Shown: one piece after another, positions 14,185-61,194 of the stretch
Position numbering within the stretch: the first letter of the stretch is position 1
Layout: each line of letters starts with the position of its first letter
NCBI RefSeq assembly: GCF_010729485.1
Contig: NZ_AP022609.1
Span: forward strand, 3,906,001 to 3,970,000
Length of the DNA stretch: 64,000 nucleotides
DNA from: Mycolicibacter hiberniae
GTDB taxonomy: Bacteria > Actinomycetota > Actinomycetes > Mycobacteriales > Mycobacteriaceae
Direction: 5' to 3'
Notes under the pieces: generated by a model
What the model was told of the DNA's origin: nothing
Seen by the model: the letters and a program-made list of their open reading frames with translations, nothing else
Databases searched by the model: none
Made by a program: the position numbers and the translations under genes

Positions 14185-14733
14185 ATGCCTGAGACCTCTC
14201 CTAGCGAAACGTCCTCCGCCAAGCCCAAGAGCGCGGGTTTTCCGCAATCTTCCACTTCCGCCTCGGCGCTGTCGGTGCCCACGATCGCCGCGCTCGCGCT
14301 GGCTGTGATCGGCATTGTTCTGGCCATCCTCGGGTGGTTCCACCCGTCGACGGGCCAGAAGTTCTCCGACGACCAGCGTGCCGAAGCCAAGGGCAACATC
14401 TGCAACGCGCAGGCAGTTGTGCGGCAGGGCACTCAGTTCAACACCAACCTGCAGAACCCGGTGCCGGGCGACCTGGCCGGTGACCTGGCGGTGGGCACCA
14501 ACGCGCGGCTCTCGCTGTTCGCCGGCGGCGCCTACCTGCACCAGAGCCTCAACGCCAACCCCGGAACCCCGGCTGACATCGCGAAGGCCGTCGGCGACAT
14601 GGCCGACACCCTCGAGGCGCTGAGCATCAACTACCTGGCCGGGCACGCCCCCGACGACGAGGTGCAGCAGCCGCTGCGCGACCAGCTGCGTGGCCAGATC
14701 GACGTCCTGGACGACCTCTGCCAGGAGCAGTAG
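14185..14733 (+). CDS. Small membrane-anchored protein of unknown function
   Basis: 182 residues. A Ser/Thr/Pro-rich N-terminal tail (1-27) precedes one membrane helix (about 28-50, [20 protein letters not shown]), then a soluble domain with two Cys (in NICNAQ and DDLCQEQ) that would lie outside the membrane and could form a disulphide. The domain contains [23 protein letters not shown] and [18 protein letters not shown] recall similar uncharacterised proteins in other mycobacteria but know no function. It is transcribed away from dprE1, with 77 bp between the two starts, and is followed by a strong hairpin, so it is probably a single-gene unit. Confidence 0.85.
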
Positions 14734-48967: not shown

Positions 48968-49093
48968 TCCGCACCCCAGAACCACTGCACTAGTATGTCT
49001 GCCAAGGTGGCGTAGCTGCGCAATGCGGGCGAGCTATCTCGTTTTGCGAGAGTTCACCGATCGCCGATCGCGAGAAGTTTGAGGGTGGCTGAT

Positions 49094-50290
49094 ATGGCCT
49101 ATGACGTCGCTCGAGTGCGTGGACTGCACCCGACGCTCGGTGACGGATGGGTCCATTTCGATTCGCCCGCGGGCATGCTGATTCCCGACTCGGTGGCGAC
49201 CACGGTGTCGACGGCGTTCCGCGGGTCGCTGGCGAAGGCCGCGGGTCCGCACCCGGCGGCGCGCCGCAGCGCCGCGGTGCTGGTCGCGGCGCGCCAGGCG
49301 GTGGCCGATCTGGTGGGCGCCGATCCTTCCGCGGTGGTGCTCGGTCCGGACCGCGCGGTGCTGTTGAGCGCACTGGCCGACGCCTCGTCATCGCGCGTGA
49401 GCCTGGGCTACGAGACCGTGGTCACCCGCCTCGACGACGAGGCCAACATCGCCCCGTGGACGCGGGCGGCCAACCGCTACGGCGCCAAGCTCAAGTGGGC
49501 CGAGGTGGACATCGAGACCGGGGAGCTGCCCAGTTGGCAGTGGGAGAACCTGATCACCCCGGCAACCCGCCTGGTGGCCCTCACCTCGGCGTCGGGTGTG
49601 CTGGGCACCGTGACCGATCTGCGGCCGGTCACCAAGTTGATCCACGACGTCGGCGGAGTGGCCGTCGTCGACCACTCGGCCGCCGCCCCGTACCAACTGT
49701 TGGACATCAAGGACGTCGAAGCAGACGTGGTGGCGCTCAACGCGGCGTCGTGGGGCGGGCCGCCGGTGGGCGCCCTGGTCTTCCGCGACCCCGCGCTGAT
49801 CGACACCTTCAGCTCGGTGTCGCTGAACCCGCACGCGGTGGGCCCGGCCCGGCTGGAGGTGGGACTGCACCAGTTCGGCCTGCTGGCCGGGCTGGTCGCC
49901 AGCGTGGAGTACCTGGCGTCGCTGGATGAGTCGGCCCGGGGGAGCCGGCCCGAGCGGCTGGCGGTCTCGATGCGCTCGGCCGGGCAGTACCTGAACCGGT
50001 TGTTCGACTATCTGCTGAGCTCCCTGCGGTCGCTGCCGCTGGTGATGCTGATCGGCGAGCCGGAGGCGCGCATCCCGGTGGTCAGCTTCGCCGTGCAGAA
50101 GGTGCCGGCCGAACGCGTGGTGCAGCGCCTGGCAGACAACGGCGTACTGGCCATCGCCAACGCCGGGTCCCGGGTGCTCGATGCGATCGGCGTCAACGAC
50201 ATCGGCGGTGCGGTCACCATCGGGCTGAGCCCGTATTCGACGACAGCCGAGGTGGACCAGCTGGTCCGGGCGCTGGCGTCGCTGGGCTAG
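49094..50290 (+). CDS. Class-V aminotransferase-fold protein without the PLP lysine (Rv3778c type)
   Basis: 398 residues, the same length as recalled for Rv3778c. The ATG at 49094 follows GAGGGTGG with a 5-nt spacer. The fold is of the cysteine desulfurase / class-V aminotransferase type: [11 protein letters not shown] (112-122), [14 protein letters not shown] (165-178), [10 protein letters not shown] (191-200) with Asp193 that would contact the PLP pyridine, and [10 protein letters not shown]. The Schiff-base lysine expected in an S-x-H-K-x-x-G-P context is absent; Ser219 in NAASWGGPP occupies that place. I recall the same region in M. tuberculosis as NAHAWGGPP, so the loss is a family feature and the protein may not be a normal PLP enzyme. 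It is divergent from the galactan operon with about 125 bp between starts. Confidence 0.88.
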
Positions 50291-50398
50291 GTCGGGGCCG
50301 CCAACTCGGTTTATCGCCGGATGCGCTTCTGCCGGCTCCGCCGCGCAGGCGATCCGGCTACGCTGTGGGCCGTTACCCCAGCACTTTCGAAGGCAGAC

Positions 50399-52261
50399 GT
50401 GACGATGGCAGAACCGACGAGTTCCCTGGCTCCCTTGGCCCTGGACACCCTCATTGACTTGCTGCAGCAGCAGGCTGCGCGTTTTGGGGACACTCCCGCG
50501 TTCATCTTCTGCCCCGAAGGCGATGCCGAAGAGAACCGGATCACCTACCGCGAACTGGACAGTCGCGCGCGTTCGATCGCCACAACTTTGCAGCGCCAAG
50601 GCGCCGCCGGTGAGCGTGTGCTGGTGCTGTGTCGCCCAGGTGTGGACAGTATCGTCGGGTTGTTCGGCTGTTTTTACGCCGGCGCCGTCGCCATTCCGGT
50701 CGACGAGCATTGGCCGATCCGGCGGATCGAGACCGTCGTCCCCGAAGCGGATGCCCGATTCGCGCTGGCGACGGCCAAGACCCAGGACAAGATGAAGTCG
50801 GCCGTGGATGGTCTCAGTGCCGGCCCGAAACTGACCTGGCTGGCCATGGATGAGGTCTCCGACGACGGCTCGGCCTGGGAACGGCAGAACGTCGCTGCGG
50901 ACAGCCTGGCCATGATCCAGTACACGTCGGGGTCGACCGGGGTGCCGAAGGGTTGCGTGCTGACCCACCGGAACTATCTGAGCAACCTCGAGATCATGCG
51001 CTGGGCCCTCAATCCTGCCGACGACGCACCAGTGATGAACAGCCCGATCAGCGGGGTGTCTTGGCTGCCGCAGTACCACGACATGGGCTTCGTCGGGGGC
51101 ATCCTCGGTACCATCTACGGCGGCCGCACCACGGTGCTGATGGCGCCGAGCGCCTTCTTGATGCGCCCGATCCGCTGGATGCAGGCCATATCGCGCTACC
51201 AGGCAACGATCACCGCCGGACCCAACTTCGCCTACGAGGCCTGCGTCAAACGCAGCACCCCACAGCAGCGCGCCGAACTCGACCTGTCGAGCCTGTCGAT
51301 CGCCGTGCTCGGCGCCGGGCCCATCAGCGCTGAGACGCTGCGGTCCTTCACCGAGGCGTTCGCTCCCGCAGGATTCCGGCCCGAGGCATTCCTTCCCGCC
51401 TACGGGCTGGCCGAGGCCACCCTGGGCGTGACGGGAATGTCGGAGTCGCCGCTGCCGGTGGTGCGGCACTTCGACCGGAGCGCGCTCGGTGAGGAACGGG
51501 TCGTCGAGGTGAACATCGACGCAGCCGGGGCGCTACCGCTGGTGGGCTGTGGCGTCAAGCCGGAGACGCTGGAAATCCTGATCGTCGATCCCGAGACGCG
51601 GCTGGACCGCGGCCCGGAGGAGGTCGGCGAGATCTGGGTGTCCGGGCCGAGCGTCGGCGTGGGCTACTGGAACCGTCCCGAAGAGACGGAGCACGCCTTC
51701 GACGCACACTTGGCCGACACCGGCCAAGGCCCCTACCTGCGCAGTGGCGACCTGGGCTTCTTCCGTGACGGCGAACTGTTCGTCACGGGCCGGTGCAAAG
51801 ACCTGATGACGATCGGCGGCTACAGCCATTACCCGAACGACATCGAATTGACCGTGCAGGACTGCCATCCGGCGCTGCTGCCCAGCCGTGGCGCGGTGTT
51901 CCAGTTGGAGACCGAGCGCTACGCCCCGGAGTACATGGTGGTGGTCCAGGAGATACAGCACCACCACGCCGAAGGGGTCGACCTCCCCGAACTGGTCGAA
52001 AAGATCCGCGCGGCGATCCGAACCCACCACGGGATCGAGGCGAAGGCGGTCATGTTGCTCAAGCCGATGCGGATACCGACTACCACCAGCGGCAAGATTC
52101 AGCGCAGCGCATGTCGCGACCAGTACCTCGCAGGTGAGCTGGTCGCGATGGCCCATTGGTCGGAGCCGCTGCCCAAGAGCGAGACCTCGATCGTCCAGAA
52201 GACCCTGCTCGCCGGCCTGGGCCGGTTGGTCGCGAACAACCTGGGGTTGAGCCGGGACTGA
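50399..52261 (+). CDS. Fatty-acyl-AMP ligase (FAAL/FadD type)
   Basis: 620 residues from a GTG at 50399 (GAAGG lies 5 nt before it); the ATG two codons later (50405) is an alternative. ANL-superfamily enzyme that activates fatty acids as acyl-adenylates. Motifs: YTSGSTGVPKG (175-185) binds ATP, SWLPQYHDMGF is the FAAL/ACS loop, YGLAEAT (335-341) is the adenine motif, and TGRCKDLMTIGGYSHYPNDIE is the hinge. PNFAYEACVKRSTPQQRAELDLSS is typical of FAALs that hand the acyl group to a polyketide synthase or carrier protein rather than to CoA. No carrier protein or PKS lies in the window, so its partner is elsewhere. The lysine of the C-terminal domain is present in TTTSGKIQRS. Confidence 0.93.
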   Translation: MTMAEPTSSLAPLALDTLIDLLQQQAARFGDTPAFIFCPEGDAEENRITYRELDSRARSIATTLQRQGAAGERVLVLCRPGVDSIVGLFGCFYAGAVAIPVDEHWPIRRIETVVPEADARFALATAKTQDKMKSAVDGLSAGPKLTWLAMDEVSDDGSAWERQNVAADSLAMIQYTSGSTGVPKGCVLTHRNYLSNLEIMRWALNPADDAPVMNSPISGVSWLPQYHDMGFVGGILGTIYGGRTTVLMAPSAFLMRPIRWMQAISRYQATITAGPNFAYEACVKRSTPQQRAELDLSSLSIAVLGAGPISAETLRSFTEAFAPAGFRPEAFLPAYGLAEATLGVTGMSESPLPVVRHFDRSALGEERVVEVNIDAAGALPLVGCGVKPETLEILIVDPETRLDRGPEEVGEIWVSGPSVGVGYWNRPEETEHAFDAHLADTGQGPYLRSGDLGFFRDGELFVTGRCKDLMTIGGYSHYPNDIELTVQDCHPALLPSRGAVFQLETERYAPEYMVVVQEIQHHHAEGVDLPELVEKIRAAIRTHHGIEAKAVMLLKPMRIPTTTSGKIQRSACRDQYLAGELVAMAHWSEPLPKSETSIVQKTLLAGLGRLVANNLGLSRD

Positions 52262-52605
52262 TCGGGCCGGGGAACCCGCCGCGCTCTATAAGGCGGTTCG
52301 GCCACCCGCGCTCGCTGTCCGGCCGCGCCGAGCGCTTCGACGGCCCTCGGAGCGGCGGCTAAAGGCCGACTTCTCGCCCCCGCCCGCTCCTAAGCAGCGT
52401 CATCAGGATAATTTGGGCCCGGCGCTGCCCTACCTTAGCGATCAGCCAGACCGATTACAGGGTGTTAAGTAAGCGCGCGGCACAGCGCCTTGCCCCGGCT
52501 GAAGTTCCGCCACCTGGCCTTATAGGCCCCCAGACCCCTTGGTATCTATCGCCACACGTGGGATCTGGCAGTTTCCATGAAGTTTTTCCTTACTAAAATT
52601 CCCGT
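52262..52605. other. Intergenic region with no supported gene
   Basis: About 340 bp after the FAAL gene. A weak imperfect hairpin (about 52271-52299) may terminate it. The second half is the most AT-rich stretch of the window and leads into a promoter. No RNA gene was recognised. Confidence 0.5.
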
Positions 52606-52633
52606 TCGACAAAACGGAAAACTCATGTAAGTT
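52606..52633 (+). promoter_or_regulatory. Candidate promoter of the GLGDxT repeat-protein pair
   Basis: TCGACA (52606-52611), a 16-bp spacer and TAAGTT (52628-52633) in AT-rich sequence give a leader of about 30 nt that ends in the Shine-Dalgarno AGGAGA (52661-52666). Confidence 0.45.
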
Positions 52634-52668: not shown

Positions 52669-54975
52669 ATGATGCAGCTGGCGCTTCGCCCGTACGTCAC
52701 CCCCGGTGTCGCCATCGCGGGTGCCGCGTTGATCGCGGTAAACGGGGCCGTTCCCGCGGCGGTGCTGCGGCCCCAAGCTGAGCCACGCCAGGCTCTTCAA
52801 GTGGTGGAACACCTCCCCGTGAAACTCACGGCGGACTTCTTCGGCCCGTGGGCCGATCTGTTCACCAACACCGCCACCAACTTGGTGGCGATGGGCTCGG
52901 ACAACGGCTGGGGCAACCTCGTCGAGCAGATCTTCACCGACCCCAGCTCGCTGACGCGGTTGCCGGAGGTCTTCGAGTTCCTGACCTCGATCATGCCCTC
53001 GATCAGCGGCTCCGACCCGCTGGAGGTCCTGCTCTCGCCGTTCCTGACGATCGGCATGGGCATGATCGGCCCGCTGGTCACGGTCAACGACGCGCTGCAG
53101 GACATCCTCAACCAGATCTTCAACCCCAATGACTTCCTGGACCCGTTCGCGGCCATCTTCACCGCCGTGCCGCGCCTGGTCGACGCCTGGCTGAACGGCA
53201 CCAGCACCATCGACGTGGCCGGCATCAGCATTCCGGCGTTCAACGGCCTGCTGGTCCCCGGTCAGAACCTGATCATCGACCTGACCGGCAGCGAGCTGGC
53301 CGACAACCTCGGCATCGGCGACCAGACCATCGCCAGCCTGCTCGACCAGACCGGAATCGGCACGCTGGTGGTGTCGAACATGCTGACCGGGCTGCTCGAC
53401 AGCGTCGGACTGGGTGACCAGACCCCCGTCGACGTGATCGACGCACTCGGTCTCGGCGACCTCCAGGTCGCCAACGTGCTCAGCACCGTCTTCGACGCGG
53501 TGGGAATCGGCAACCCCACCATCGCCGACATCATGGACCAGATCGGCATCGGCGACGTGCAGCTCGCCGACATCGCAATCGACTTCACCAACGCACTGGG
53601 CTTTGACAACCCGACCATCGTCGACCTCGCCGGTGACATCGGTCTGGCCGACCTCAAGCTGGCCGACCTCGGCCTGGATGTCCTCGAGGCGCTGGGCATC
53701 GGGGACCCGACCGTCAACGAGCTGCTCGGCACGCTTGGCGCCGACGATCTGACGCTCAACGGCCTGCTGCAGACCGCCCTCGAGGCGCTGGGTCTTTCCG
53801 GCTCGACCCCGGCCACCATGCTCGACGCGATGGGCATGGGTGACACCACCACCCACGAGTTCGTCAACAACCTGCTCGGCGGACTTGGTCTGGGCAACCA
53901 GACGATGATGGACCTGCTCGGTCAGGCCGGACTCGCCGACGCCGACATGTCGCAGCTGATCATCAGCATCCTCGGCTCATCGGGCGACGCCACGGTGGCC
54001 GACCTCATGGGCTACGCCGGGTTCGGCGCGGTCACGGTCAAGGACGTCACCGACCTGTTGGGCATCACCAACCTGTCGGTGGGCACGATCATGGGCAACC
54101 TGTCCTACATCACCGGCAACCTCACGATCAACGACATGCTCATCGCCACCGGCATGACCCCGCTGGACAAGGGTGGTGACGACCTGCTGTCCAACGCTCT
54201 GCAGGGCACCACCATCGCCAGCGTCCTGGGTGACCAGCTGAACGACCCGCTGATCTCGATGCTGGGCGCCACCGGCGAGATGACGATCGCCGACATGATC
54301 CAGACGAACTTCTCGATGACGCTGGGCCAGATGCTCGTCGACTCGGGCATGGCCGACCTGACCCTGGCGGACCTGGTGCTGGGCGGTTTGCCCGACGAGC
54401 CGCTGGCGAACCTGCTGGGGCCGCTGGGCACCACCACCTTCGCGGAGCTGGTCAACCAGATGGTGCCCGCCGACCAGACCATCGCCGACATGCTGAGCGA
54501 AGCCGGTATCGGTGACCAGACCCTGAGCCAGCTGCTCGACCAGACCTTCGGCGACCAGACCGTGGCCAACGCGCTCGACGACGCCGGCCTGGGCAGCATG
54601 CAGCTCGACGACATCATCCGGCAGGCGCTGGGCCCGCAGACCGTCAACGAGATGCTCAACGAGTTCGGTATCGGCGGGCAGTCGCTCAGCGATCTGTTCG
54701 ACCAGTTCTTCGGCACCTCGACGATCAGCGACTGGATGATCGACCTGGGCCTGGGCGACCAGACTCTCAACGAGCTGATCGACTCGCTGTTCGGCCCGGC
54801 CACCGTGAGCGCGCTGCTCGGCGACTTCGGGCTTCAGACCGTCGACGAACTCTTGGCGTCGCTGGGCCTCGGCGACATCACCGTCATCAACGCACAGATC
54901 GGCGAATTCTTCGGTTCGATCTCCTACTGGCTCGACGGGCTGGGCGACCAGATCACGGCGGTGCTCGGTGGTTAA
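52669..54975 (+). CDS. Secreted repeat protein A with 14/18- and 27-residue GLGDxT repeats
   Basis: 768 residues. Two ATGs are tandem (52669, 52672); the second is better spaced from AGGAGA. The start MQLALRPYVTPGVAIAGAALIAV is a signal-peptide-like segment that I associate with NTM proteins annotated as GjpA-like porins. Residues 35-200 form a non-repetitive domain (FFGPWADLFTNTATNL, TSIMPSISGSDPLEVL, IPAFNGLLVPGQ). From about 205 the chain is tandem repeats that alternate 14 residues (GLGDQTPVDVIDAL) and 18 residues (GLGDLQVANVLSTVFDAV), later becoming 27-residue units (GIGDQTLSQLLDQTF plus GDQTVANALDDA). It closes with IGEFFGSISYWLDGLGDQI, shared with the next gene. Probably exported; function unknown. 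The downstream paralogue begins 40 bp after the stop, so the two form an operon. Confidence 0.88.
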   Translation: MMQLALRPYVTPGVAIAGAALIAVNGAVPAAVLRPQAEPRQALQVVEHLPVKLTADFFGPWADLFTNTATNLVAMGSDNGWGNLVEQIFTDPSSLTRLPEVFEFLTSIMPSISGSDPLEVLLSPFLTIGMGMIGPLVTVNDALQDILNQIFNPNDFLDPFAAIFTAVPRLVDAWLNGTSTIDVAGISIPAFNGLLVPGQNLIIDLTGSELADNLGIGDQTIASLLDQTGIGTLVVSNMLTGLLDSVGLGDQTPVDVIDALGLGDLQVANVLSTVFDAVGIGNPTIADIMDQIGIGDVQLADIAIDFTNALGFDNPTIVDLAGDIGLADLKLADLGLDVLEALGIGDPTVNELLGTLGADDLTLNGLLQTALEALGLSGSTPATMLDAMGMGDTTTHEFVNNLLGGLGLGNQTMMDLLGQAGLADADMSQLIISILGSSGDATVADLMGYAGFGAVTVKDVTDLLGITNLSVGTIMGNLSYITGNLTINDMLIATGMTPLDKGGDDLLSNALQGTTIASVLGDQLNDPLISMLGATGEMTIADMIQTNFSMTLGQMLVDSGMADLTLADLVLGGLPDEPLANLLGPLGTTTFAELVNQMVPADQTIADMLSEAGIGDQTLSQLLDQTFGDQTVANALDDAGLGSMQLDDIIRQALGPQTVNEMLNEFGIGGQSLSDLFDQFFGTSTISDWMIDLGLGDQTLNELIDSLFGPATVSALLGDFGLQTVDELLASLGLGDITVINAQIGEFFGSISYWLDGLGDQITAVLGG

Positions 54976-55015
54976 TCGACAGGGAAGCTTCGGAACTTCA
55001 GTCCGGGAGGGCGTC

Positions 55016-57421
55016 ATGCAGCAAACACTTCGTCCGTACGTCACCAGCGGCATGGCCGTTGCCGGGGTGGGCCTGGTCGCGGTGCCTTCGGTGGCCGCGA
55101 CCCTGCCTCAGCTGCAGCACCAGATCGCGATCGCCCAGCAGCAGAGCGTCGCGCTGACGTCGGGCTTCTTCTCGCCCTACACCGACCTGTTCGAGAACAC
55201 CATCGCCAACCTGCAGGCGTTGAACCAGAACTCCGTCGACATGTGGGGTCTGCTGCAGCACATCTTCACCCACCCCGACCAGGCGATCTCCGGCATCCCC
55301 GATGTCATCAACATCTTCACCAACTCGATGCCGTCCATCAACGTGCAGGCGCTGCCCTTCCCCGTCGGTGTCGACATCGAGCTCCCGCTGTGGATGAACT
55401 CGCTGCTGGCGGGCGTCGGTCCGTGGGTCACACTTTTCGAAGCCATGGGCGACGTGCTCCGCCAGGTCTTCGACTGGAGCGACCCGATGGCTGCGCTGTC
55501 CGCGCTGATCGGTGCGCCGGCGACCCTGCTGGACGCCTTCCTCAACGGCAGCAGCGGTCTGACCTTCGGCGACGCCAGCGTCCCGCTGTTCAACGGCGTC
55601 CTGACTCCGGGACAGCCGATCGACGCCAATTTCACCATCGGCAGTGTGGTGGAAGCCTCTGGCTTCGGCGACCTGACCATCACCCAGATGCTCTCCGACG
55701 CCGGAATCGGCGATGTTCCGCTGGAGACCCTGATCATCGATCTGCTGGACCAGGCTGGCTTCGGCCACATGACGCCGGTGGATGTGCTCAACGAGTTCGG
55801 GATCGGCACGCAGACGCTGTCCGAACTGCTGATCGGCGTGTTCAACGAGGCCGGCATCGGTAACCCGACGATCGCTCAGCTGCTCGAAGACCTCGGTGGC
55901 TTCACCGCGGACGACTCGGTCGCGAGCCTGCTGATCGCCCTGCTGAACTCCCCGGAAGTCGGGATCGGCAACCCCACCCTGTCCGAGATGATCCTGGACT
56001 TGGTGGGCGGTGACAACCAGACCGTGGGCGGGCTCATCAAGGATCTGCTCGGCGCTCAGGGCAACGAGTCGCTGGCCAGCCTGGTCGACCCGAGCTGGAC
56101 TGTCGGCGGACTGATCAAGGACTCGATGCCCGATGTCCCGCTGACTGACTTTTTCGAGCAGATGGGCCTCGGCAACATCACCATCGGCGCGCTCCCCGCA
56201 ATGTTGGGCGAGTACGGCGACCAGACACTGGTCGACCTGATCAACAGCGGATTCCTCGGGCCGGACATCACCGGCTCCACCCCGCTGATGGAACTGATGG
56301 CCGGCATGATGCCGCCCGGCTCCACCTTGGACAGCCTGCTGGGTGAGTTCGGCGACCAGACTCTCGGTGAGTTGATGGAGGGGATGCCGATCGGTGAGAA
56401 CACCATCGGGTACGACCCTGACACCCCGATCACCGACGTGATCCTCGGGGACTTGCTGAAGACCCTGCCGGGCCAGGGCGGGGCGGCGACTTTGTTCGAC
56501 ACGCCGCTGGGTGTGCTCGCCCCCGACATGGCATCGCTGCTTGAGAAGGCCGGCAACCCGACTCTGGGCGCGGTGTTGGGTCCCAACACCGTCGGCGAGA
56601 CCGTGCAGAACATGAACATGTACGACGTCACCGTTGTCCAGATGATGAACGCGATGGGCATCGGCAACTTCTCGGTCGAGTACCTGTTCGAGCAGCTCGG
56701 CGACATGACCGGCAACGTCACCCTCGAGCAGTTCTTCGACGCGTGGGGCTTCGACCCGACGCTCACCGCCCTCATGGAGAACGCGATCGCCGGCCTGGGG
56801 CTGACCGACACCACGCTGCTGCAGCTGTTCGAGGACTGGGGCATGGGCAGCCTCGGCCTCTACAACCTGATCGACAGCCTCGGCTTGGACAACATCTTCC
56901 TCCAGGAGACGCTGAACAACCTGGGCCTGAACAACATCAGCATCGACATGTTCATCGACCGCTTCGGGTTGAGCAGCATCTCGATCGCCGGGCTGCTCGC
57001 CGACCTCGGGTTCGACGTCCGGACTCTCGACGAGGTCATCGAGAGTCTGCTGGGTGGAGTGTCGATCGGCAGCATCCTGGGTGGACTGGGTCTCGACGAG
57101 GTCTACCTCGACACCTTCATCACCGACCTGATGACCAGCGTGCTCGGCGACCCGACCCTGGGCACGTTGCTCGGCTGGCTGGGCCTGGACACCTACGACC
57201 TGGACACCATCGTCGCCAACCTTGGCCTCGGCGGCGTGACGATCAACTCGCTGCTCACCGATCTCGGCCTCGGCAGCCTCGACATCAACGGTTTGGTCGA
57301 GGGCTTGGGCTTGGCGGACATCGGCCTGCTCAGCATCAACGGCGACTTCTTCGGAGTGGCCGCCGAATGGCTCAACGACATCCCGCAACAGATCGCCGCG
57401 GCGTTGGGCTACACAGGCTGA
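55016..57421 (+). CDS. Secreted repeat protein B, paralogue of protein A
   Basis: 801 residues from the ATG at 55016, which has GGGAGG five bases upstream; the frame is open further upstream into the preceding stop. The signal segment MQQTLRPYVTSGMAVAGVGLVAV and N-terminal domain (GFFSPYTDLFENTIANL, SMPSINVQALPFPVG, VPLFNGVLTPGQ) match protein A closely. The repeat region starts near residue 200 with alternating 14/18-residue units (GFGHMTPVDVLNEF, GIGTQTLSELLIGVFNEA), has a degenerate middle, and near the end has clean 14-residue units (GLDNIFLQETLNNL, GLNNISIDMFIDRF, GLGGVTINSLLTDL). The C-terminus INGDFFGVAAEWLNDIPQQI mirrors protein A. A small 6-bp hairpin follows the stop. Likely exported partner of protein A. 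Confidence 0.88.
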   Translation: MQQTLRPYVTSGMAVAGVGLVAVPSVAATLPQLQHQIAIAQQQSVALTSGFFSPYTDLFENTIANLQALNQNSVDMWGLLQHIFTHPDQAISGIPDVINIFTNSMPSINVQALPFPVGVDIELPLWMNSLLAGVGPWVTLFEAMGDVLRQVFDWSDPMAALSALIGAPATLLDAFLNGSSGLTFGDASVPLFNGVLTPGQPIDANFTIGSVVEASGFGDLTITQMLSDAGIGDVPLETLIIDLLDQAGFGHMTPVDVLNEFGIGTQTLSELLIGVFNEAGIGNPTIAQLLEDLGGFTADDSVASLLIALLNSPEVGIGNPTLSEMILDLVGGDNQTVGGLIKDLLGAQGNESLASLVDPSWTVGGLIKDSMPDVPLTDFFEQMGLGNITIGALPAMLGEYGDQTLVDLINSGFLGPDITGSTPLMELMAGMMPPGSTLDSLLGEFGDQTLGELMEGMPIGENTIGYDPDTPITDVILGDLLKTLPGQGGAATLFDTPLGVLAPDMASLLEKAGNPTLGAVLGPNTVGETVQNMNMYDVTVVQMMNAMGIGNFSVEYLFEQLGDMTGNVTLEQFFDAWGFDPTLTALMENAIAGLGLTDTTLLQLFEDWGMGSLGLYNLIDSLGLDNIFLQETLNNLGLNNISIDMFIDRFGLSSISIAGLLADLGFDVRTLDEVIESLLGGVSIGSILGGLGLDEVYLDTFITDLMTSVLGDPTLGTLLGWLGLDTYDLDTIVANLGLGGVTINSLLTDLGLGSLDINGLVEGLGLADIGLLSINGDFFGVAAEWLNDIPQQIAAALGYTG

Positions 57422-57508
57422 GCCTGCTGACGCAGGCAAGGCGCCGTACCAGACCAAATGACAGACAGAGCTAGCACAACTGTGGGCCACACAGATAGGA
57501 AATCCCAA

Positions 57509-58165
57509 ATGGCAGTAGGGCGTAACACTTCGGGTCTCGGTCGGCAGAGTCGGCGCAGCCGACGACTGTTGGGTGCCGGTAGTGCGGTTGGGGCGTTTTT
57601 GACGTTTGGGATGGCGCCGTTGTCTGCGGCGCCTGCGGCGCATGCTGATGAGTTTGATTGGGTTGTGGACCTGCTGGGTGATGACCTGGCGGGTGCGTTC
57701 GCGGATCTGAGTCAGGCGTCGTCGTGGGAGACGTTGTTTGACGCGGGTTCGTGGGAGCCGTTGCTGTCGAACGTGGGGTTGTCGTTTGATGCGTCGGTGG
57801 CGGACCTGCCGGGTGGGGCGGCTGCGGATGACTGGTTCGGTTCGCTGTTCTACCAGCCGTTGTATGAGCTGGGGCAGGCTTGGATTCTGAGCCCGATCGG
57901 TGAGCAGGTCAATTCGTTTATCAACCTGTTCGGTTTCGGTCAGATGCTGATCGGTAACGGTGAAGACGGTATCGACGGTGGCACGTTGGCTGAGGCTGCT
58001 GGTGGTACCGGTGGTCTGTGGTTCGGTGATGGTGGTGCTGCGGGTACGTCGCTTGACGGTATCGGTGGTGTCGGTGGTTCGGCGGCATGTTCGGTAATGG
58101 TGGCGTCGGTGGTGACGGTTTTGACGGCGGCGATGGTGGTGCTGGTGGTGCCGGCGGTTGGTTGA
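57509..58165 (+). CDS. PGRS-repeat protein 4, N-terminal fragment (frameshifted)
   Basis: The ATG at 57509 ([19 protein letters not shown]) has AGGA 8 nt upstream; an earlier in-frame ATG at 57458 is less likely. Signal peptide with [21 protein letters not shown] and cleavage near AAHA, then [21 protein letters not shown], related to the giant PGRS N-domains, and [18 protein letters not shown], related to PGRS protein 3. PGRS repeats begin about residue 165 but are lost after [10 protein letters not shown] at 58081-58082 appears to have lost one G, and the PGRS reading moves to the ORF at 58087. The closing [19 protein letters not shown] is therefore an artefact of the wrong frame. Confidence 0.8.
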
Positions 58166-61100
58166 TGGGCATCGGTGGTGATGGTGGTGCTGGTGGCGCT
58201 GGCATTGCTGGTGGTGATGGTGGCCTCGGTGGCGCCGGTGGTGCGGGTATCGGTCTGTTCTACGGCGTTGGTGGTAACGGTGGTCTCGGTGGCGACGGCG
58301 CGTTGGGTGCGGCCGGTGTGGCTGGTTTGGCCGGGCTGGACGGGTTGGCCGGTGACAACGGTGGTGCCGGCGGTGCTGGTGGTGCCGGTGGTCGGGGTTC
58401 GTGGCTGATCGGTTCCGGTGGTAAGGGCGGCGCCGGTGGTGCCGGTGGCGCCGGTGGTGCCGGCGGCAATGGTGGTGCCGGTATCGACGGTGTGCTGGCC
58501 GGTGAAGACGGTGGCGACGCCGGTGACGGTGGCAACGGCGGTAATGGTGGTGCCGCGGGTGCTGCCGGTGCTGGTGGTGTCGGCGGTTGGATCGGTTCCA
58601 ACGGTCTGGCCGGTGCGGTGGGTATCGGCGGTAATGGTGGCGCTGCCGGTATTGGTGGTAACGGTGGTGCGGGTGCTGACGGTGACGCGTCGAATCTTGA
58701 TGGTGGTGCCGGTGGTCGTGGTGGCGACGCCGGTGTAGCCGGTAACGCGGGCGGCGCTGGTGGTGTCGCGGGTGCGGCGGCGACCTCCGGTGGTAACGGT
58801 GGCCGCGGTGGCGATGCTGCCGATGCGTTGGTGGCCGGTGGCAATGGTGGTGTGGGTGGTCGCGGTGGTGACGCGGGCAACCTGGGCGATGGTGGCGCCG
58901 GCGGTAATGGTGGCGCGGGTGCGGTCGGTGTCGCGGGCGCGACGGTCGGTGCCGATGGCACCGATGGCCTGGCCGGTGGTAACGGTGGCGCTGGTGGTGC
59001 CGGTGGTGCGGCCGGTTCGCTGGCCGGTAACGGTGGCGCTGGTGGTGTCGGTGGTGCCGGCGCCGCGGGTGGTGCCGGTGGTGCGGCGGCTGATGGGGAC
59101 GCGGGTCTTAACGCGGTGGCCGGTAGCGGTGCTGACGGTGGTAACGGTGGCGATGCGACCGGTACCGCGGGCAACGGTGGCGCCGGTGGTGTTGGTGGTG
59201 ACGGTGGCGCTGGTGGTGCGTCGGCGAAGGGTCTGGCCGGTGTGCACGGTGCCGGTGGTGTCGGTGGCGACGGTGGCGCCGGTGGCGCGGCCGGTAACGG
59301 TGGCACCGGTGGTGCTGGTGCCGGCGGTGGACTTTCCGCGGTGGCCGGTGCCGGTGGTAAGGGCGGTAACTCCAGCTCGGCGGCCGGTGCCGGTGGCGTC
59401 GGTGGTGCGGGTGGCTCCAGTGGCGGGTTGTTGGCGGCCTCGGGTGCTGACGGTGGCGAGGGTGCGGCCGGTAACGGTGGCGACGGTGGTGTCGGTGGCG
59501 CGGGCCAGGTCCTCGGTGATGGCACCGTCCAGGCCGGTGGTGCCGGTGGTGCCGGTGGCGACGCCGCCGACCACGGCAACGGCGGTAACGGTGGAGCCGG
59601 CGGCCAGGGCGCAACCGGTGTCGACGGCGAGACCGACCTCAGCGGCAACGGGACAGCTGGTGGCACCGGTGGCGTCGGCGGCAACGGTGGCACCGGCGGC
59701 GCGGGCGGTGCCCTCTCCGGTGTCGGTGGTACCGGTGGCGCTGGCGGCGTAGGCGGTACGGGCGGTAACGGCGGTACGGCAGCGGATGCGACGGTCGCAG
59801 GCGGAACCGGTGGTACCGGTGGTGACGCCGGCGCCGGTGGCCTCGGTGGTGACGGTGGCGCCGGTGGCGTCAGCAACACCGGTGGTGACGGTGGTGCCGG
59901 TGGCGCCGCGGGCAATGGTGGCGCGGCCGGCCAGGCCGCGGCTGGCGGTAAGGGCCTGGGCGGCGGCGGCCTCGACGCCGCCGGAGCGGGCGGCGCGGGC
60001 GGTAACGGCGGCGTCGGTGGCGCGGCCGGTACGGCCGGTCTGGGAACCGACGGCGGTGCGGACGGCAGTGCGGGCAGCGTCGGTGCCGGGAGTGCCGGTG
60101 GCGTCGGTGGTGCTGGTGGCGACGGTGTCGGTCTGGGCAGCGACGGCGTGACCGGCCAGGCCGGTGGCGCGGGTGGCGCTGGTGGTGACGCGGCGATTGA
60201 CGGCAACGGTGGCGCCGGTGGTGCCGGCGGCCGTGGTGCGGACGGAACGGACGGAATCACCGACCTCTCCGGTAACGGCATCGCCGGCGGCAACGCCGGT
60301 GCCGGTGGTAAGGGCGGCGTCGGCGGTGCGGGCGGCAGCAACTCCGGTGACGGTGGCGCCGGTGGTGTCGGCGGTGCGGGCGGCATCGGCGGTAACGGTG
60401 GTGCGGCAGCTGACGCGACGGTCGCCGGTGCTGACGGCGGCAACGGCGGCGACGCCGGCTTCGGTGGCGCCGGTGGCGCGGGTGGCGCGGGCGGTACCGC
60501 GACGAACGGCACTGGCGGTGTAGGCGGCGACGGCGGCAACGGTGGTGCGGCCGGTCTGGCGGCTGCCGGAGGTACGGGCCTCGGCGGCAACGACCAGGAC
60601 GCGGCCGGCAACGGCGGTAGCGGCGGAAACGGCGCCGACGGTGGCGCGGGCGGTAAGGCAGGCGCCGGTGGTGTCGGCGTTGACGGTGGCGCGGCCGGTG
60701 TCGCGGGCCTGGCAGGACTCAGCAGCGACGGGGCCAACGGTGGCGCCGGTGGCGCCGGTGTCGGTCTGGCCAGCGATGGTGCGACAGGCCAGGCCGGTGG
60801 TGCAGGTGGTGCCGGTGGAAACGCGGCAAGCATCGGCAACGGTGGCGACGGCGGTTTCGGTGGCATCGGTGCGACCGTGGCCGGCCTGACCGACATCAGC
60901 GGCAACGGGACCGCCGGCTTCCTCGGCGGCACGGGCGGCGCCGGTGGTACCGGCGGTGCCGGTGGATCGACCGCCGGTAACGGTGGTGCCGGCGGACACG
61001 GTGGCGCCGGCGGCAACGGTGGTGCCGGTGGCGCCGGAGCAGACGCGACGGTCGCCGACACCGCGGGCGGTCACGGCGGTGGCGGCGGTAGCGGCCAGCG

Positions 61101-61194
61101 GCCAGCAATGGCGTCGGCGGCGGTGCGCCGGTGCGGTGACGCGGCGGTGGGCGGGGCGGCGGCGCCGGTGGTGTCGGTGGTGGCGGCGGCTTGA
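58087..61194 (+). CDS. PGRS-repeat protein 4, middle part
   Basis: 1,035-residue frame of PGRS repeats ([21 protein letters not shown]...) with no signal peptide or ribosome-binding site, so it continues the gene that starts at 57509. Repeats include longer units around [23 protein letters not shown] and [14 protein letters not shown], repeated about every 220 residues. The frame degenerates after [10 protein letters not shown] (about 61090) into Ala/Arg/Val-rich sequence and stops at 61194, while PGRS coding resumes in another frame by 61140-61170. Confidence 0.8.

What the first reader, a model, noticed from the sequence alone, without database searches (positions are those of the whole stretch)
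52669..57421. A pair of secreted proteins built from 14/18- and 27-residue GLGDxT repeats
Protein A alternates 14-residue (GLGDQTPVDVIDAL) and 18-residue (GLGDLQVANVLSTVFDAV) units in a 32-residue pair, then turns to 27-residue units near its end. Protein B has the 14/18 pairs early and pure 14-residue units late. The pattern G-(L/I/F)-x-x-x-(T/S)-(L/I/V)-x-x-(L/M)-(L/I/F) looks like a leucine-rich solenoid that I cannot assign to a known family. The two share an N-terminal domain and a C-terminal FFGxxxxWL segment and form an operon. This is my best candidate for an undescribed system.
Basis: partly seen in the sequence, partly recalled or inferred. Interest (0 to 1): 0.8.

Follow-up and report, generated by a model that had tools for sequence, protein, structure and literature searches.

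The report
Paired solenoid partners of PGRS proteins
Two neighbouring genes in a non-tuberculous mycobacterium encode long repeat-built, probably exported proteins that kept together in the relatives examined, next to a glycine-rich surface-type protein and a fatty-acid-activating enzyme, and that may form a cell-envelope complex for which I found no description.

Summary
A (52669-54975, 768 aa) and B (really 55016-57421, 801 aa) are conserved genes of Mycolicibacter (M. terrae complex). A has 14/18 (32-residue) then 27-residue periods; B has weak 32- and clear 14-residue periods. They share an N-domain and a C-terminal cap. The repeat has no accepted match in Pfam, NCBIfam or PDB. AlphaFold gives, at moderate local and low global confidence, a solenoid of very short strand-plus-helix coils.

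The pairing is real: the same 18 of 396 genus genomes carry full-length A and B, directly adjacent in 17. Diverged copies at other loci keep the order A-like then B-like, and one protein is an A-B fusion.

High-scoring GjpA genes are followed by a signal-peptide PGRS gene in 16 of 18 tested cases, as B is here; one fatty-acyl-AMP ligase subfamily sits near GjpA-type genes in 10 of 15 cases. I read A and B as an obligate pair of envelope proteins, an elaborated form of a GjpA-PGRS module, probably anchoring or assembling the PGRS partner (confidence about 0.4). Export, location and partner contact are inferred. New variant, not a new kind.

The parts
49079..50290 (+). cysteine desulfurase-like protein (TIGR01976), fixed left neighbour of the cassette
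   Evidence: NCBIfam TIGR01976 455 bits over cut-off 352; present at 90-98% identity in 14 of 17 distinct cassette-1 loci, the sequence ending close upstream of FAAL or A in the other 3
50321..52261 (+). fatty-acyl-AMP ligase (FAAL) of a distinct subfamily
   Evidence: NCBIfam FAAL models match strongly (fatty acyl-AMP ligase PRK12476 E 3e-127) but below their cut-offs; PDB FAALs FadD32, FadD23, FadD28; subfamily members at 48-86% identity, other FAALs at most 40%; same strand upstream of A in 16 of 17 distinct cassette-1 loci
52669..54975 (+). protein A, 768 aa (767 from the second ATG at 52672): signal-like N-terminus, GjpA-type N-domain, 14/18 then 27-residue solenoid, C-cap
52669..53283 (+). 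A: LRPYVT N-terminus plus GjpA-type N-domain (about residues 1-205)
   Evidence: hhalign 99.3%, E 2.4e-20, 208 columns against GjpA-family alignment A4
53284..54873 (+). A: solenoid, 39 predicted helices of four or more residues (about residues 206-735)
   Evidence: AlphaFold model, local pLDDT 59-79 in this part, pTM 0.26
55016..57421 (+). protein B, 801 aa from the corrected start (ORF opens at 54968): same architecture as A, weak 32-residue pairs early, 14-residue units late
57458..58165 (+). start of the signal-peptide PGRS gene that follows B; here its reading frame breaks compared with L066, and glycine-rich sequence goes on in another frame (ORF from 58087)
   Evidence: the signal peptide is judged by eye

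Best explanation
A and B are an obligate pair of exported cell-envelope proteins of the mycobacterial GjpA superfamily. Each is built from a short hydrophobic LRPYVT export segment, a GjpA-type N-domain and a long solenoid of about 39 very short strand-plus-helix coils closed by a C-terminal cap. I think the two solenoids lie together as one complex, held at the mycomembrane by their N-domains, and that this complex anchors or assembles the signal-peptide PGRS protein encoded directly downstream; the neighbouring FAAL supplies an activated fatty acid for the same envelope site. Shown: the repeats, homology of the N-domain, invariant pairing and order in what was examined, a natural fusion, linkage to PGRS and FAAL genes, purifying selection. 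Inferred: export, location, heterodimer, contact with PGRS, role of FAAL, and the course of the solenoid.
For: Pair: the same 18 of 396 genomes have full-length A and full-length B; in 17 the two matches lie 44-71 nt apart on one strand; the 18th (G580) has the order A-B twice near its contig ends, one of the two genes frame-broken in each copy. A and B clades of 16 rows each have support 100/99. At two other kinds of place the first gene is A-like and the second B-like by profile score: cassette 2 (L075 452 vs 326 and 341 vs 249; L076 435 vs 301 and 354 vs 253) and cassette 3 (L077 425 vs 286 and 483 vs 355); P0032 is an A-B fusion (378 vs 300; 387 vs 274). Lengths are nearly fixed: A 766-773 in 16 loci and 766-774 in 27 database proteins, B 793-802 in 16. 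dN/dS 0.16 for both against L066. N-domain: hhalign 99.3% and 99.4% with GjpA-family proteins. PGRS: a signal-peptide PGRS start follows B in 15 of 17 distinct cassette-1 loci and in 3 of 3 distinct cassette-2 loci, and follows 16 of 18 GjpA genes of at least 340 bits, 136-280 nt between the profile matches. FAAL: 10 of 15 subfamily FAALs against 2 of 52 other FAALs lie within 2.5 kb of a GjpA-type gene. No cysteine and pI 4.1 in 32 of 32 orthologues, which fits export but does not show it.
Against: No experiment places A or B anywhere, and no signal-peptide predictor was run. A and B fall far below the curated GjpA cut-off (B 26.8 of 100 bits; A of this genome not listed at E 0.01). The name 'outer membrane porin' points to Gordonia, yet the model hit only the own genus in 200 genomes of the order (11 of 200 at E 1e-10), so the function in the name may not carry over. 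Only 1 of 21 weaker GjpA members had a PGRS start behind it in my partial list, and no random-gene control was run. FAAL linkage is partly block duplication in related genomes: without the A/B cassettes it is 5 of 10 against 2 of 52. The models have pTM 0.25-0.26. Single relatives with the same repeat and without FAAL or PGRS beside them exist. The PGRS gene next door is frame-broken in this very genome.
Confidence: 0.42

Rival explanations
1. A and B are surface adhesins or ligand-binding rods that work as a pair but have no functional tie to the PGRS protein; the PGRS genes are merely expanded in the same region.
For: Long acidic repeat rods are a common design of surface binders (general knowledge); the genomes have many PGRS-type N-termini (20 matches in G000, 57 in G285) and the window itself is full of PGRS sequence, so neighbours can be PGRS by crowding; the PGRS gene here is frame-broken.
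Against: The PGRS gene follows directly on the same strand at cassette 1, at cassette 2 and behind high-scoring GjpA genes at several separate places, while only 1 of 21 weaker GjpA genes has one in the list used. Length hardly varies among orthologues, unlike many adhesins.
Confidence: 0.25
2. The pair handles lipid: a solenoid with a greasy groove that carries or stores the product of the FAAL on its way to the outer envelope.
For: FAAL subfamily near GjpA-type genes in 10 of 15 cases against 2 of 52 for other FAALs; cassette 1 lies among genes that look like the arabinogalactan region (by eye), and a wax ester/triacylglycerol synthase gene lies about 3.4 kb from cassette 3 (L077).
Against: No lipid-carrier domain was listed; FAAL and A can stand on opposite strands or be split by another gene (L067, L072, L073, L077); half of the cases are the A/B cassettes of related genomes.
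Confidence: 0.15
3. A and B form a hydrophilic channel of the mycomembrane, as the name of the GjpA family says.
For: Profile homology of the N-domain with NF033942 proteins.
Against: Curated cut-off not met; the added 530-residue solenoid is not a porin feature; the family name is the only functional evidence and the family was not found outside the genus here.
Confidence: 0.1
4. The repeats are tandem helix-turn-helix units that bind nucleic acid.
For: Pfam HTH-type models hit some of the 51 members of A1: HTH_AraC in 8 (best E 4.7e-7), Xre_MbcA_ParS_C in 5 (8.3e-5), TetR_N in 1 (1.2e-5).
Against: In A the hit is 17.1 bits against a cut-off of 26.6; the hits name different HTH families in different members, as expected from a helix-turn-helix-like repeat; pI 4.1 and an export-like N-terminus.
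Confidence: 0.03

Closest known systems
NCBIfam NF033942, 'outer membrane porin GjpA'
   Same: Homologous N-domain over about 210 columns including the RPY start, a GP segment, the LNG segment and the GLL-PG segment; 16 of 18 high-scoring members too are followed by a signal-peptide PGRS start.
   Different: A and B score far below the family cut-off, align only to the first two thirds of the family alignment and carry a solenoid and a cap instead of its end; they come as a pair.
PE proteins carrying a GjpA-type domain (L105, L106)
   Same: The same domain core, weakly (55% probability, E 1.2e-4, 68 columns).
   Different: There it stands behind a PE domain (recognised by eye and from memory), here behind an LRPYVT segment.
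PE_PGRS proteins
   Same: The partner gene has a glycine-rich PGRS-type region and a LIGNG linker (likeness to PE_PGRS recalled).
   Different: The partner has a signal-peptide-like start in place of PE; A and B themselves have neither PE nor PGRS.
Other repeat proteins of the same superfamily (1590-aa paralogue in G000, M. shimoidei L078, P0080, P0081, P0085, P0089, P0103)
   Same: RPY start, N-domain, repeated G-L-G-D-type helices, and an F-G-x...P-x-Q-I...L-type cap.
   Different: Single genes where the surroundings were seen; no FAAL or PGRS match at E 1e-12 in the four such loci searched (L093, L094, L097, L098).

Membership tests
NF033942 GjpA | curated score of 100 bits | tested here: not met
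   B 26.8 bits over positions 2-60; A of this genome not listed at E 0.01, A of G314 19.9 and of G285 17.6 bits
NF033942 GjpA | homologous domain at profile level | tested here: met
   hhalign 99.3% E 2.4e-20 and 99.4% E 5e-21 against six family members
NF033942 GjpA | channel formation in the outer membrane | not testable with these tools
   needs bilayer measurements
PE / PPE proteins | N-terminal PE or PPE domain (Pfam) | tested here: not met
   no PE or PPE family among the Pfam matches of A and B or of the 51 members of A1
Leucine-rich repeat proteins | match to an LRR family in Pfam | tested here: not met
   none listed at E up to 10, filters on, or in 51 members at 0.01
Leucine-rich repeat proteins | LRR horseshoe fold | tested here: inconclusive
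   strand-plus-helix coils in the model, no LRR structure among the rows listed, low global confidence
Helix-turn-helix DNA-binding proteins | match above the Pfam cut-off | tested here: inconclusive
   A 17.1 against 26.6 bits, not met; some other members hit at E down to 4.7e-7, their scores against the cut-off not shown
FAAL (for the neighbour gene) | similarity to solved FAALs | tested here: met
   FadD32 (E 8e-89), FadD23 (6e-86), FadD28 (6e-64); no cut-off of an NCBIfam FAAL model reached

The most novel reading that the evidence does not exclude
A and B, and GjpA-type proteins in general, are the trans-acting envelope partners of PGRS proteins that have no PE domain: a PE-independent, Sec- or Tat-exported route by which mycobacteria put PGRS sails on their surface, in which the A/B double solenoid is a dedicated two-subunit assembly platform with a fold not yet solved, and a dedicated FAAL lipidates or supplies lipid to the complex. 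PE proteins with a GjpA-type domain would be the cis version of the same arrangement.
Probability: 0.15. Interest if true: 0.85.

Novelty: new variant of a known kind. Interest (0 to 1): 0.55.

Why it matters
How PGRS proteins without a clear PE domain reach and hold to the mycobacterial surface is open: a 2025 review (PMC11939664; section 2.2 read, passages) notes PGRS proteins in M. smegmatis and related species whose N-termini need confirmation and whose location is disputable. The gene linkage found here (GjpA-type gene, then signal-peptide PGRS gene, often with a particular FAAL nearby) names testable partners, and the A/B pair offers a repeat without a solved relative in the searches I ran.

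Tried and rejected

The deep branching of A-like and B-like genes in the N-domain tree was unresolved (42/69 at the fork), so the A-like/B-like order outside cassette 1 rests on profile scores. M. shimoidei L078 scores nearer to B (290 vs 224) but joins A in the tree (89/85, long branches flagged): unresolved. The DNA pattern was about as frequent as its control and was dropped.

Paper searches, listings only: Mycolicibacter with PGRS, M. terrae complex / repeat / FAAL, 'LRPYVT' (0 papers), GjpA or Gordonia jacobaea, Gordonia jacobaea / channel-forming / porin, GjpA with Mycobacterium (5 papers, off topic), PGRS domain / signal peptide / lacking the PE domain. None of the listings pointed to this system. 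Of PMC4559739 I read passages: a pore-forming protein of G. jacobaea is mentioned, not named. That the system is undescribed means only that, in an open-access library.

Rows left out. I entered 34 PGRS places (four of them two rows merged) out of those listed, whose listing was itself cut; chosen because they lie near GjpA-type genes or rank high. Unlisted ones could only raise the hits, in both score classes. The GjpA genes there are those in genomes also searched for PGRS; one of at least 340 bits in G099 was left out because G099 was not searched, and one search scored at most 10 candidates per genome. GjpA places plus four A-type genes, fragments of one gene mostly merged and a few neighbouring fragments omitted; FAALs are all 11 rows (E 1e-30) and all 56 (E 1e-60); 10 of 54 rows were dropped as short or duplicate; my start motif missed A in L072 and B in L069, both present, and cut the start of one L077 gene.

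Full report
Where it is. The window is G000:C1:3906001-3970000 of a one-contig 4.40-Mb genome. The named relatives with the closest genes are Mycolicibacter, nearest M. engbaekii with 95% for both proteins. To the left lie genes that look like the arabinogalactan cluster (emb, aftA, dprE and galactofuranosyl-transferase types, recognised by eye; recalled names, not searched), broken up by long PGRS sequence.

Observation. The repeats are real and far above shuffles in A; in B the late 14-residue units are clear and the early 32-residue pairs weak. The start of B should be 55016. A and B have no cysteine and pI 4.1 in the 32 orthologues checked. Substitution patterns show selection on the protein: dN/dS 0.16 for A and for B against L066, and 0.27-0.40 against three more distant species.

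Architecture. The AlphaFold models (A: pLDDT 64.7, pTM 0.26; B: 62.0, 0.25) agree with each other: a low-confidence export-like start, a helical N-domain with a beta hairpin, then coils of a bridge residue plus a helix of typically 7 (14-residue unit) or 11 residues (18-residue unit), 39 helices of four or more residues in each protein, and a C-terminal strand and helix. In A the 7/11 alternation runs regularly from residue 221 to 405; the middle of both proteins is less regular. Local confidence in the coils is about 53-84, global confidence low, so the path of the rod is not known. No structure in PDB or, for A, BFVD matched at E 0.001.

Pairing. With profile A1 174 of 396 genus genomes have some match at E 1e-8, mostly to the N-terminus alone, and 18 have full-length A. 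With profile A2 20 of 396 match at E 1e-60 and the same 18 have full-length B. Each search scored only two candidates per genome, so further copies may be missed. The A and B matches are 44-71 nt apart in 17 of 18. G580 carries the A-B order twice near its contig ends, one gene of each copy frame-broken, perhaps an assembly overlap. Cassette 2 was read in three distinct loci (L024, L075, L076), and B-like matches of its kind occur in five genomes; cassette 3 is in L077. In L075, L076 and L077 the first gene is A-like and the second B-like by profile score. P0032, 1287 aa, holds both halves in the same order in one protein. So the two genes have duplicated as a unit and kept their order. Single genes with the same repeat also exist, so pairing marks the A/B type, not the whole superfamily.

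N-domain. One metagenomic relative gave a sub-threshold hit to NCBIfam NF033942, 'outer membrane porin GjpA'. That model gives 11 matches in this genome, B among them with 26.8 bits and the 1590-aa paralogue with 70.5. Profile-profile comparison of A1 and A2 with six GjpA-family proteins gives 99.3% and 99.4% over about 210 columns, the whole N-domain. 21 of the 51 rows of A1 are B-like or other relatives and most of them are also in A2, so the two comparisons are not independent. In the order the model matched 11 of 200 genomes at E 1e-10, all of the own genus; 14 control genomes gave none. The name should therefore not be trusted as function.

Neighbours. In 17 distinct cassette-1 loci FAAL lies upstream on the same strand in 16 and the PGRS start downstream in 15; the misses lie at contig ends. 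In 3 of 3 distinct cassette-2 loci both are present, at 54-55% and 42-49% identity. In L077 the FAAL is on the other strand and the gene after B begins like the PGRS gene (seen by eye). In L067, L072 and L073 a second, inverted FAAL lies between FAAL and A, so A-B-PGRS is the tighter unit. Of the GjpA genes with at least 340 bits, 16 of 18 are followed by a signal-peptide PGRS start, of weaker ones 1 of 21 (partial list, no random-gene control). FAALs split into a subfamily (578 bits or more to ours) and the rest (348 or less); 10 of 15 subfamily members and 2 of 52 others lie within 2.5 kb of a GjpA-type gene in nine genomes (Fisher p 7e-7; without the A/B cassettes 5 of 10, p 7e-4; the genomes are related, so these p values are too small).

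Reading. The simplest account is a recurrent envelope module made of a GjpA-type protein and a signal-peptide PGRS protein, often with a particular FAAL nearby, of which A/B is an elaborated two-subunit form. That A and B anchor or assemble the PGRS protein is my inference from gene order. Against it stands the frame break of the PGRS gene in this genome relative to L066, which may be an assembly fault in a GC-rich repeat or a real loss. The signal-peptide nature of the PGRS start and the export of A and B are judged by eye.

Score. The N-terminal quarter of each protein, though, belongs to a superfamily with a named family in it. Hence 'new variant of a known kind', interest 0.55.

Noticed in passing
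57458-61194: The PGRS gene after B changes frame compared with L066; the glycine-rich part continues in another frame. Copies open over the same part exist in relatives (L060, L066).
   Followed up: partly
L093 (about G000:C1:2571300-2575920, minus strand): A single 1590-aa paralogue in the same genome with a very long, regular run of 13/14-residue GLGDxTL units, GjpA-type start and cap.
   Followed up: partly
L105, L106, L118: PE-like N-terminus followed by a GjpA-type domain; the L106 gene lies 0.9 kb from the FAAL-like part of a gene of about 3000 aa.
   Followed up: partly
L115, L116: Tandem GjpA-PGRS gene pairs; in L115 three GjpA-type and two PGRS genes alternate on one strand, with a FAAL next door.
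   Followed up: partly
G000, G285, G314, G246, G157, G187: PGRS genes with the same signal-peptide-like N-terminus are abundant in these genomes (20, 57, 43, 42, 28 and 31 matches) and nearly absent from four other species searched (0, 0, 1, 0).
   Followed up: no
52600-52620: AT-rich stretch with a small inverted repeat (CCGTT...AACGG) upstream of A, perhaps an operator or promoter element.
   Followed up: no
L095, L096 (G580): Two copies of the cassette near the two ends of a one-contig genome, each with a broken gene; may be an unresolved circular overlap.
   Followed up: partly
NCBIfam NF033942: A family named after a Gordonia porin was found only in the own genus among 200 genomes of the order; the name may be misplaced.
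   Followed up: partly
14185-38000: In the window the place where relatives carry cassette 2 (by the gene at 14185) has long PGRS stretches and one PGRS-type start (15336), but no FAAL', A' or B' match.
   Followed up: partly
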